Both the position numbers and the translations under genes were made by a program. DNA of 64,000 nucleotides. It comes from an uncultured Ruminococcus sp. GTDB taxonomy: Bacteria > Bacillota > Clostridia > Monoglobales > Monoglobaceae. Location: the NCBI GenBank assembly GCA_902760955.1, contig CACWIG010000003.1, positions 1-64,000 on the forward strand, given 5' to 3'. Below, piece by piece: positions 38,899-42,369 of the stretch. Below the pieces are notes generated by a model. It was not told where the DNA came from. It searched no databases and saw nothing but the letters and a program-made list of their open reading frames with translations. Each line of letters begins with the position of its first letter. Position 1 is the first letter of the stretch.

Positions 38899-39053
38899 AT
38901 CGTTCACTTTGTTCACGATGAAATCCAAACAAGTTTGGATGAAATCCTCGCTATACTCGGTTGAAATTAAATCCGTCTTTTATCCGCCGCAGGCGATTTC
39001 ATCTGCGTAGCAGATTTCATCCACGAAGTAGATTTCTTCCGTCACAAGACGGA
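38899..39053. repeat. Cluster of small hairpins separated by GAAAT/ATTTC spacers
   Basis: Successive hairpins include ATCCAAAC-AA-GTTTGGAT (38923-38940), ATCCGCC-GCA-GGCGAT (~38982-38997), ATCTGC-GTA-GCAGAT (39001-39015) and TCCGTC-ACAA-GACGGA (39038-39053), each bounded by ATGAAAT or ATTTCAT. The ~500-bp gap between the half-transporter and the integrase holds this cluster, the tRNA terminator and the attachment site, but no gene. Similar arrays are familiar from other gut Clostridia. Confidence 0.6.
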
Positions 39054-39061
39054 TTTAGTTG

Positions 39062-40444: not shown

Positions 40445-40473
40445 TTGACAAATATCAGAATTGTGTGTATAAT
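40445..40473 (+). promoter_or_regulatory. Consensus promoter of the predicted antitoxin RNA
   Basis: TTGACA (40445-40450), 17 bp, TATAAT (40468-40473). No coding gene with an RBS follows before the terminator at 40523-40563, so it drives a short untranslated RNA. Confidence 0.8.
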
Positions 40474-40479
40474 AAAAGC

Positions 40480-40565
40480 AGATAAGAGGTATACCGTTGA
40501 ACGGTTAGCCAAAGTTTCAATTAAAAAATAACTGCTGCTTTGGAGTGTGGGCAGTTATTTTTTTA
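40480..40565 (+). ncRNA. Predicted antitoxin small RNA of a type I toxin-antitoxin locus
   Basis: An RNA of about 85 nt is expected from the consensus promoter at 40445-40473 to the stem-loop with T-run at 40523-40563. It contains the hairpin ACCGTT-G-AACGGT near 40493-40505. Its 3' half is antisense to the 3' end of the toxin message, including the last toxin codons and the shared terminator. Convergent overlap at a bidirectional terminator is the arrangement of known type I systems of Firmicutes such as those of C. difficile. Confidence 0.6.
40523..40563. terminator. Shared bidirectional terminator of toxin and antitoxin RNAs
   Basis: AAAAAATAACTGC (40523-40535) pairs with GCAGTTATTTTTT (40551-40563), giving A/T tracts on both sides. 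The toxin stop codon lies within the stem. Confidence 0.8.
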
Positions 40566-40623
40566 TGGTCACTATAATGAGCAACAGTAAAATCATAAAA
40601 GAAATTATGTACTCCGTTTGCAT
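40555..40623 (-). CDS. Predicted type I toxin: 22-residue hydrophobic membrane peptide
   Basis: The peptide is 22 residues long: a polar start (MQTEY), one unbroken hydrophobic segment (IISFMILLLLIIVTI) and a Lys-Lys end. This is the layout of type I (holin-like/BsrG/Fst-like) toxins that insert in the membrane. A strong RBS, GGGGGTG, lies 7 bases before the ATG, and an in-frame stop two codons upstream fixes the start. A promoter (40706-40734) sits 83 bp upstream, giving a long structured leader as in other type I toxins. No database comparison was possible. Confidence 0.6.
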   Translation of the reverse strand: MQTEYIISFMILLLLIIVTIKK

Positions 40624-40705
40624 AAATTATCACCCCCAATCCCGACTTAAAATCACGAGATTTGAGAGGCTAACCGTCCACTTATACCTTTTATATGCAA
40701 ATGGT

Positions 40706-40734
40706 ATCATATCACATATTTATTGGCTTGTTAA
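40706..40734 (-). promoter_or_regulatory. Promoter of the toxin message
   Basis: On the minus strand TTAACA (40734-40729), 17 bp, TATGAT (40711-40706). The predicted leader is about 75 nt. Confidence 0.6.
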
Positions 40735-41667: not shown

Positions 41668-42369
41668 TTACTTCTTTTTATTAACTTCATTCATATAGCC
41701 AGCAGTGATTATGCCGGTGGGGAGTGCAACAATTGCAATGCCCATAAAAGAAGATAGCATACTCACAATCCTACCTACATCAGATGTTGGATATATATCT
41801 CCGTAACCAACAGTAGTTAAAGTAACAACTGCCCAGTATATGGCATCAAAGAAGTTATCAAAAGTATTTGGCTCAACTTGGAATAGGATGAGTGCGGACA
41901 GAATTATGTATCCGCCAGCTAATACACATACGGCAAACAATGCTTTTTTTTCTCTTTTTATTACAGAAATAATTAAATTAAAACTTTTTGAATACCTGAG
42001 TAGACGAAGCGTTCTGAACGCTTTACCAAGTCTGAAAAGTTTTAACATCCTTAGGCCGTTGTTTAAAAGCGTAAACGCAGGAAGTATAGAGAGTAAATCT
42101 ATTATCGCAAATATTCCAAAAGGATATCGTATAAATGCCATTTTTGAGTTATCATATTTGAAATCAGCAGTACACCAGCGAAGAATATAGTCTATAATAA
42201 ATATAATAACTGTTATATTATTTACCCATTCAAATATAAAATTTGTCTGTTTAAAGAAAAGGGGTATAATGCTCAAAATTATACATATAAGCATAAATCG
42301 GTCGTAGATTAGGCTTATTATGTCGTTGGTCTCGGCAATTTCAATTACATCATAAATTCGCTTTCGCAC
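41668..42369 (-). CDS. Voltage-gated potassium channel homologue encoded by the prophage
   Basis: This 233-aa protein has six predicted helices. The S4 segment carries a positive residue at every third position (Arg107, Lys110, Arg113, Lys116, Arg119, Arg122, Arg125). The pore loop holds the K+ selectivity filter TVGYGD (186-191) between S5 and S6. No cytoplasmic RCK domain is present. It starts at GTG 42369, 18 bp after the repressor stop, so it is probably cotranscribed with the repressor and expressed in the lysogen. A superinfection-exclusion or membrane-potential role is inference. Confidence 0.88.
   Translation of the reverse strand: MRKRIYDVIEIAETNDIISLIYDRFMLICIILSIIPLFFKQTNFIFEWVNNITVIIFIIDYILRWCTADFKYDNSKMAFIRYPFGIFAIIDLLSILPAFTLLNNGLRMLKLFRLGKAFRTLRLLRYSKSFNLIISVIKREKKALFAVCVLAGGYIILSALILFQVEPNTFDNFFDAIYWAVVTLTTVGYGDIYPTSDVGRIVSMLSSFMGIAIVALPTGIITAGYMNEVNKKK

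What the first reader, a model, noticed from the sequence alone, without database searches (positions are those of the whole stretch)
40445..40734. Predicted type I toxin-antitoxin locus in the prophage, with a 22-residue toxin
Seen: a 22-codon hydrophobic peptide (40555-40623, minus) with RBS GGGGGTG, a 17-bp-spaced promoter upstream and a long leader. Facing it is a consensus promoter (40445-40473, plus) that can only make a short RNA. Both RNAs end at the same bidirectional stem-loop (40523-40563), so their 3' ends are complementary, including the last toxin codons. Known: convergent peptide and antisense RNA pairs of this kind stabilise plasmids and prophages in Firmicutes (Fst, TxpA, BsrG, C. 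difficile prophage systems). The peptide is shorter than those I know, and standard gene finders would miss it.
Basis: partly seen in the sequence, partly recalled or inferred. Interest (0 to 1): 0.8.

Follow-up and report, generated by a model that had tools for sequence, protein, structure and literature searches.

The report
New prophage mini-toxin and antisense RNA
A prophage, probably of a gut bacterium, carries a 22-residue membrane peptide facing a small RNA that very probably silences it, and this pair belongs to a large unannotated family of toxin-antidote pairs whose two RNAs oddly begin with the same sequence.

Summary
One copy alone is weak evidence; conservation carries it. In 51 genomes of the order (Monoglobales, by named relatives) an RNA model finds the antisense RNA in 35, up to 18 copies each. 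Peptide profiles on the other strand give 126 hits at E<=0.001; 125 abut such an RNA, as do 70 of the 71 hits outside the 58 copies first collected. Peptides are under purifying selection (pN/pS 0.38-0.46). Of 80 RNAs, 13 face a lost or damaged toxin; 1 of 126 toxin hits lacks the RNA. [quoted passage not shown] toxicity is untested. Peptides match no known family, the RNA no Rfam family. The same rule appears in 16 of 30 Hol_Tox loci, and the one Hol_Tox gene found in the order abuts an RNA of this family. New variant of a known kind.

The parts
40445..40473 (+). promoter of the antisense RNA, TTGACA-17-TATAAT
   Evidence: 12 of 12 positions
40474..40566 (+). antisense RNA (antitoxin), about 86-93 nt; 5' end inferred from the -10 box
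   Evidence: model R1, 91.9 bits, own genome (the model was built with this copy); family of 52 aligned copies
40478..40510 (+). 5' twin element of the antisense RNA; folds GGU..ACCGU-UGA-ACGGU..GCC
40523..40563 (.). shared bidirectional terminator stem-loop; 3' ends of both RNAs are complementary here
   Evidence: stem covaries in the family, 8 of 9 pairs with changes on both sides
40555..40623 (-). 22-residue toxin frame MQTEYIISFMILLLLIIVTIKK
40631..40637 (-). ribosome-binding site GGGGGTG, predicted sequestered in the leader
   Evidence: unpaired probability 0.11 here
40617..40624 (-). start-codon side of a predicted helix with the mRNA 5' end (TTTGCATA at 40701-40694)
   Evidence: fold; arms also (I6). 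Looked at in this locus only
40668..40701 (-). 5' twin element of the toxin mRNA, same sense as that of the antisense RNA
40706..40734 (-). promoter of the toxin mRNA, TTAACA-17-TGnTATGAT
   Evidence: many homologues have TTGAC(A/T)-17-TATAAT

Best explanation
A type I toxin-antitoxin module in the lysogeny region of a prophage. Shown by comparison: a conserved 19-28 residue hydrophobic peptide is encoded opposite a conserved small RNA with a consensus promoter, the two meet at one bidirectional terminator, and the toxin leader is predicted to hide its own ribosome-binding site. Inferred: the toxin mRNA is made but kept silent by its own leader; the antisense RNA, from the better promoter, pairs with it first through the terminator loops and the roughly 43-nt overlap, then at the 5' twin element, where the antisense RNA's C-G rich 5' arm takes over the 3' arm that the mRNA holds with weaker A-U and G-U pairs. 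The duplex is degraded or left untranslated. If the prophage is lost and the antisense RNA runs out, the peptide inserts into the membrane and stops growth.
For: RNA model R1 and peptide profiles A2/A3, made from opposite strands, converge: 125 of 126 peptide hits at E<=0.001 abut the RNA in the expected place. 55 of the 126 are copies that had been collected before the models were built; of the 71 others 70 have the RNA (two of the 71, L086 and L110, were rows of A3 and had been found through R1). Coding: pN/pS 0.39, 0.46, 0.38 in three length classes, third codon positions change most. Terminator stem covaries. RBS unpaired probability 0.18 against 0.39 with shuffled leaders, lower in 43 of 47. 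Decay: 13 of 80 RNAs face a lost, broken, extended or leaderless toxin, 1 of 126 toxin hits lacks the RNA. The sRNA 5' arm pairs with the mRNA arm better than the mRNA does with itself in 43 of 49. Mobile context: prophage here, six IMG/VR contigs L174-L178 and L286. Type I systems contribute to keeping a C. difficile prophage (PMC7699646, passages).
Against: No transcript, translation or toxicity data. At least three own-genome copies lie next to core genes (alaS, V-ATPase D, yicC), where prophage addiction cannot be the reason. Predicted pairing of the sRNA 5' domain with the leader is only moderately above shuffles (mean z -1.3) and not cognate-specific (mean rank 20 of 47). The invariant IKK tail of group A is the complement of the RNA's U tract, so that part of the conservation may be the terminator's. 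In the 23-residue group a shifted frame also gives a low pN/pS (0.46 against 0.38). The sequences are related, so z and p values overstate independence. No match in 50,697 phage records by blastn at E<=0.001.
Confidence: 0.85

Rival explanations
1. The peptide is a small membrane regulator, for instance of superinfection, lysis timing or envelope stress, and the antisense RNA tunes it; it is not an addiction toxin.
For: Core-chromosome copies and up to 18 copies per genome; on phage contigs the module sits inside a tail gene cluster.
Against: Antidote without intact toxin is seen in 13 of 80, toxin hit without antidote in 1 of 126, as expected if the peptide alone is harmful.
Confidence: 0.1
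2. The two RNAs do not act on each other through the 5' element; the twin element binds one shared factor (a protein or an RNase) or only records an inverted duplication. This concerns the twin element only and is compatible with a type I system.
For: The element is same-sense in both RNAs, and predicted pairing at the 5' end is not cognate-specific.
Against: Motif variants match within a locus (40 of 49 identical; median cognate rank 2 of 49), and the arm exchange is energetically favoured in 43 of 49.
Confidence: 0.4
3. A chance open frame over a bidirectional terminator between integrase and its neighbour.
For: Promoter and terminator counts in this stretch are near shuffle level.
Confidence: 0.01

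Closest known systems
par of pAD1 (Fst/Ldr family)
   Same: Convergent promoters, bidirectional terminator, sequestered RBS, repeats near both 5' ends, mobile elements (PMC7472228, passages).
   Different: par repeats are direct in DNA, so the RNAs are complementary there; here they are inverted and the RNAs are alike. No Fst hit in Pfam. Peptide 22, not 33 aa.
TxpA/RatA, BsrG/SR4, BsrE/SR5 and Pfam Hol_Tox (PF16935)
   Same: Convergent, 3' overlap, short hydrophobic toxins, prophages. R1 matches abut Hol_Tox toxins in L285 (51 bits), L271 (42) and L275 (35.5); same-sense twin in 16 of 30 Hol_Tox loci.
   Different: Overlap about 43 nt against 100-140 bp in the B. subtilis systems (PMC6562991, passages); toxins without Hol_Tox signature.
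Ibs/Sib of E. coli
   Same: Very short (19 aa, passage) hydrophobic peptide.
   Different: No Ibs hit in Pfam. The gene arrangement of Ibs/Sib is recalled and was not tested.
C. difficile CD0956.2/RCd10 and related
   Same: Convergent, overlapping, prophage-borne, Clostridia (PMC6563280, passages).
   Different: Toxins 34-59 aa with charged C-terminal tail; no direct comparison with our peptides was made beyond the Pfam and NCBIfam scans.

Membership tests
type I toxin-antitoxin system (functional class) | short hydrophobic peptide, under selection as protein | tested here: met
type I toxin-antitoxin system (functional class) | antisense RNA overlapping the toxin mRNA | tested here: met
   layout; transcription itself not shown
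type I toxin-antitoxin system (functional class) | peptide toxic, RNA neutralises it | not testable with these tools
   needs expression; only the decay asymmetry bears on it
Fst/Ldr (par) | toxin homology (Pfam PF13955) | tested here: not met
   no Fst hit up to E 10 for 9 peptides (three other, sub-threshold hits, E 0.35-2.7); PF13955 in 0 of 249 genomes, own included
Fst/Ldr (par) | direct repeats giving complementary RNA 5' regions | tested here: not met
   same sense, complementary z>3 in 0 of 49
Fst/Ldr (par) | shared bidirectional terminator and sequestered RBS | tested here: met
   (prediction)
Hol_Tox PF16935 (BsrE-like) | toxin above the curated Pfam score | tested here: not met
   (9 peptides of this family); own genome 0 hits
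Hol_Tox PF16935 (BsrE-like) | same antisense RNA and leader scaffold | tested here: inconclusive
   R1 abuts Hol_Tox clearly in L285 and L271, weakly in several others; twin element in 16 of 30
known RNA family (Rfam 15) | covariance model match | tested here: not met
   Searches (window, gathering threshold; 13 loci, E<=0.1): no match on the module
Ibs/Sib | toxin homology in Pfam | tested here: not met
   one search gave no Ibs hit; RNA layout of Sib not tested

The most novel reading that the evidence does not exclude
The twin 5' element is a general, unrecognised rule of convergent type I systems in Bacillota: toxin mRNA and antitoxin RNA open with the same hairpin in the same sense, the antitoxin's being tighter, and silencing runs by hairpin exchange between two look-alike RNAs rather than by simple antisense pairing. 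Different toxins (EYIISF..IKK, K-x-I-L-R..KAI and Hol_Tox types) are then interchangeable cargo on one RNA chassis.
Probability: 0.35. Interest if true: 0.75.

Novelty: new variant of a known kind. Interest (0 to 1): 0.6.

Why it matters
It adds two unannotated toxin peptide groups and an RNA family found in 35 of 51 genomes of an order of gut bacteria, up to 18 times per genome, in prophages, phage tail operons and the core chromosome. It also offers a testable mechanism: two RNAs of one locus that begin alike, a feature shared with many Hol_Tox systems and opposite to par. The search recipe (RNA model on one strand, peptide profile on the other) can expose further such systems that gene finders miss.

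Tried and rejected
RNAalifold on the MAFFT alignment saw only the terminator: the 5' hairpin is split over columns because its arms differ between subgroups, so I folded it per locus. Cognate specificity of 5' pairing was looked for and not found. Fst as a contrast: PF13955 found 0 of 249 genomes, so the par contrast rests on the literature. Automatic choice of the toxin -10 box is plainly wrong in several loci (for example L023, L024, L058, L067-L070, L079); motif and leader tests use the part next to the start codon. The first Hol_Tox same-sense test (12 of 30 above z 3) took in promoter sequence; the repeat with 75-nt leaders is the one I count, and even there the matched stretches of L257, L259 and L265 include TATAAT-like letters. 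A plasmid record of Monoglobus pectinilyticus with 3 matching places has the same array and neighbours as the chromosome of G022, so I do not count it as proof of plasmid carriage; the blastn search of phage records found nothing. Chance frame and orphan terminator were rejected on conservation. Exact-pattern hits in Bacteroidota, an actinobacterium and Alcaligenaceae are taken as chance: of the five examined with R1 (L160, L162, L163, L164, L169) only L162 gave a weak 29.8-bit match.

Rows dropped before counts: one search used 80 of the 84 matches (two in L100 and one in L115 are duplicates, one in L052 is weak); and the own-family part use 49 of 58 loci: L044 and L073 were left out by hand, and in 7 (L028p3136, L046, L047m1479, L053, L054, L055, L056) the script found no leader motif, either because the leader is altered or because the motif differs, so these count against the rule; one search uses 47 of those 49 (L065, L077 left out) and 47 (an RBS string was found); Hol_Tox tests use 30 of 31 loci (L274, a partial match, left out).

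Full report
CHECK. The finding is there as described. The plus promoter matches the consensus at all 12 positions. The 22-codon frame runs from 40623 to 40555 on the minus strand, and the stem-loop at 40523-40563 can end both RNAs. By count alone such signals are expected here (12 promoter-like sites, 11.9 in shuffles), so one locus would not carry the claim.

RELATIVES. One DNA search hit 33 of 60 genomes, own included. From 60 fetched stretches and the window, 58 copies pass a script's test for sRNA -10 box, a motif CGGTT(A)GCC or variant, and a facing hydrophobic frame with an RBS-like string. Peptides fall in two groups: A, M-x2-EYII-x-FMI-x-LLLL-x-(I/V)-(S/T)-IKK, as in the window; and B, for example MWKYLLKVIVSIIIIFVIVSIKAV. 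Named records place the family in Monoglobus and neighbours: contig lengths tie G002, G010 and G019 to public MAGs, and NCBI puts Monoglobus in Monoglobales, Monoglobaceae.

DISTRIBUTION. Covariance model R1 (52 sRNAs) finds matches at E<=0.01 in 35 of 51 genomes of the order, own included: up to 18 in G010, 16 in G027 and 14 in G031, 6 in the own genome. In 299 genomes drawn from the phylum it matches 23, own included; 11 of these 23 have a best E above 0.001, and several weak ones show no peptide, so that figure includes chance matches. Peptide profiles, which use only the other strand, give 48 A and 78 B hits at E<=0.001 in the same 51 genomes. Of these 126, 109 abut an sRNA in the listed top 150. 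Sixteen of the other 17 were fetched: 15 have the sRNA (26-42 bits) and one, L239, lacks it; the 17th, L032, has it. So 125 of 126. The models were built from copies already known to have both parts: 55 of the 126 are such copies, and of the 71 others 70 have the sRNA (two of the 71, L086 and L110, were rows of A3 first found through R1). Of the 150 listed sRNAs, 41 have no A or B profile hit; they include orphans and other toxins.

CODING AND DECAY. pN/pS is 0.39 (26 unique A genes, 123 pairs), 0.46 (14, 36) and 0.38 (10, 13), with third positions changing most; start and last three codons were left out because the latter lie over the sRNA terminator. Shifted frames give 0.90 and 3.8, 0.89 and 1.7, 0.46 and 1.3, so the last class is the least telling. 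Among 80 sRNA matches, 66 face an intact toxin by the script's test; one is cut by a contig end; 13 do not: 5 with no recognisable frame, 4 with the leader or first half gone, 1 frameshifted, 3 running past the usual stop (my reading of the printed sequences). Two Monoglobus sequences, G022 and a M. pectinilyticus record with the same neighbours, differ in array size, five against four copies, and one of the five has lost its stop. This is the pattern expected if losing the toxin is harmless and losing the antidote is not; the sample is not free of search bias.

ANATOMY OF CONTROL. The toxin leader is predicted to fold so that the RBS is mostly paired: 0.18 unpaired against 0.39 with shuffled leaders, lower in 43 of 47. 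In the window the mRNA 5' end is also predicted to pair over the start codon. The sRNA ends in a terminator whose stem covaries. The RNAs overlap over about 43 nt, that is the terminator and the last codons.

TWIN ELEMENT. Both RNAs begin alike: GCAGATAAAAGG..CGGTTAGCC or a locus variant (ATGCC, GTC). In 49 loci the same-sense similarity of sRNA and leader has mean z 5.7, above 3 in 41; the complementary sense has mean z -0.4, above 3 in none. The motif after CGGTT is identical in both RNAs of the locus in 40 of 49, and cognate pairs are more alike than non-cognate ones (12.4 against 8.7, median rank 2 of 49). The sRNA's 5' arm pairs with the mRNA's 3' arm better than the mRNA's own arm does in 43 of 49. 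Seven more loci had no leader motif that the script could find. I infer a hairpin exchange; predicted pairing over the whole 5' domain is only mildly above shuffles and not cognate-specific, which speaks for restraint.

KNOWN SYSTEMS. In par of pAD1 the RNAs run across DNA direct repeats and are complementary there (PMC7472228, passages); here the repeats are inverted. Nine of our peptides pass no Pfam or NCBIfam cut-off (weak sub-threshold hits only, E 0.11 or worse), four match no PHROG at E<=0.001, and the RNA matches no Rfam family. But R1 led to loci in other families that encode Hol_Tox (L137, the same place as L275: Pfam E 3.2e-12), and the only Hol_Tox gene found in 51 genomes of the order (L285) abuts an R1 match of 51 bits. 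Among 30 Hol_Tox loci, 16 have a same-sense twin above z 3 and 1 a complementary one; the BsrE-like L255 is among the 16. Toxin exchange on a conserved RNA pair has a precedent: bsrG/SR4-like loci of some Bacillus encode BsrH/E instead (PMC6562991, passages). I found no mention of a same-sense twin element in the passages seen of PMC7472228, PMC6562991, PMC6563280, PMC8309996 and PMC7699646, nor of this family in the listings; most subscription papers and all supplements were out of reach, and PMC8040213, which lists candidate structured RNAs of human microbiomes, was seen only in a listing and may hold this RNA.

CONTEXT. The window copy lies between the prophage integrase and the S24 repressor of a phage with terminase, portal, head protease, major head protein and tail sheath genes. 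On IMG/VR contig L176 the module lies beside the tail tape-measure gene; L174 looks the same by eye, but its neighbour had no Pfam match. Three other copies of the own genome lie next to alaS, the V-ATPase D subunit and yicC, so the family is not only a prophage device. Blastn found no relative in 50,697 phage records.

VERDICT. A real, conserved and unannotated type I-like module, 0.85; a new variant of a known kind; interest 0.6.

Noticed in passing
38991-39061 minus: Gut-1 RNA (RF01706, 51.3 bits against 50 gathering) just beyond the integrase stop; may mark the prophage edge.
   Followed up: no
L028 1667-3236; L287 1935-3100: Arrays of the module, all in one direction, in Monoglobus: five copies in one sequence and four in another; pairs in L045, L047, L050.
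   Followed up: partly
L066, L071, L078, L242, L243 (toxin leaders): A repeated hairpin-rich stretch (GGGAAAAGGAACAATCGC...GCGCATTGTG) has replaced the toxin leader in several Monoglobus copies.
   Followed up: no
L241-L243, L250-L254 (sRNA promoters): Palindrome over the -35 box of the sRNA promoter (such as TTCCCCTTTG..CTTGACAAAGGGGAA), possibly an operator.
   Followed up: no
L176 1090-1416; L174 13381-13681: Module placed inside a phage tail gene cluster, beside the tape-measure gene, in IMG/VR contigs (PHROG match for L176 only).
   Followed up: partly
40555-40563: The invariant IKK end of group A toxins is the complement of the sRNA U tract, so a terminator and a toxin tail share the same bases.
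   Followed up: partly
41668-42369 minus: Frame that looks like an ion channel (selectivity motif TTVGYGD, recognised by eye) in the lysogeny region.
   Followed up: no
L124, L126, L140, L145: R1 matches in other families face further peptide types (for example ..FAIACFSLGYALGKD..; two of them scanned, no Pfam match over cut-off), still with a twin motif.
   Followed up: partly
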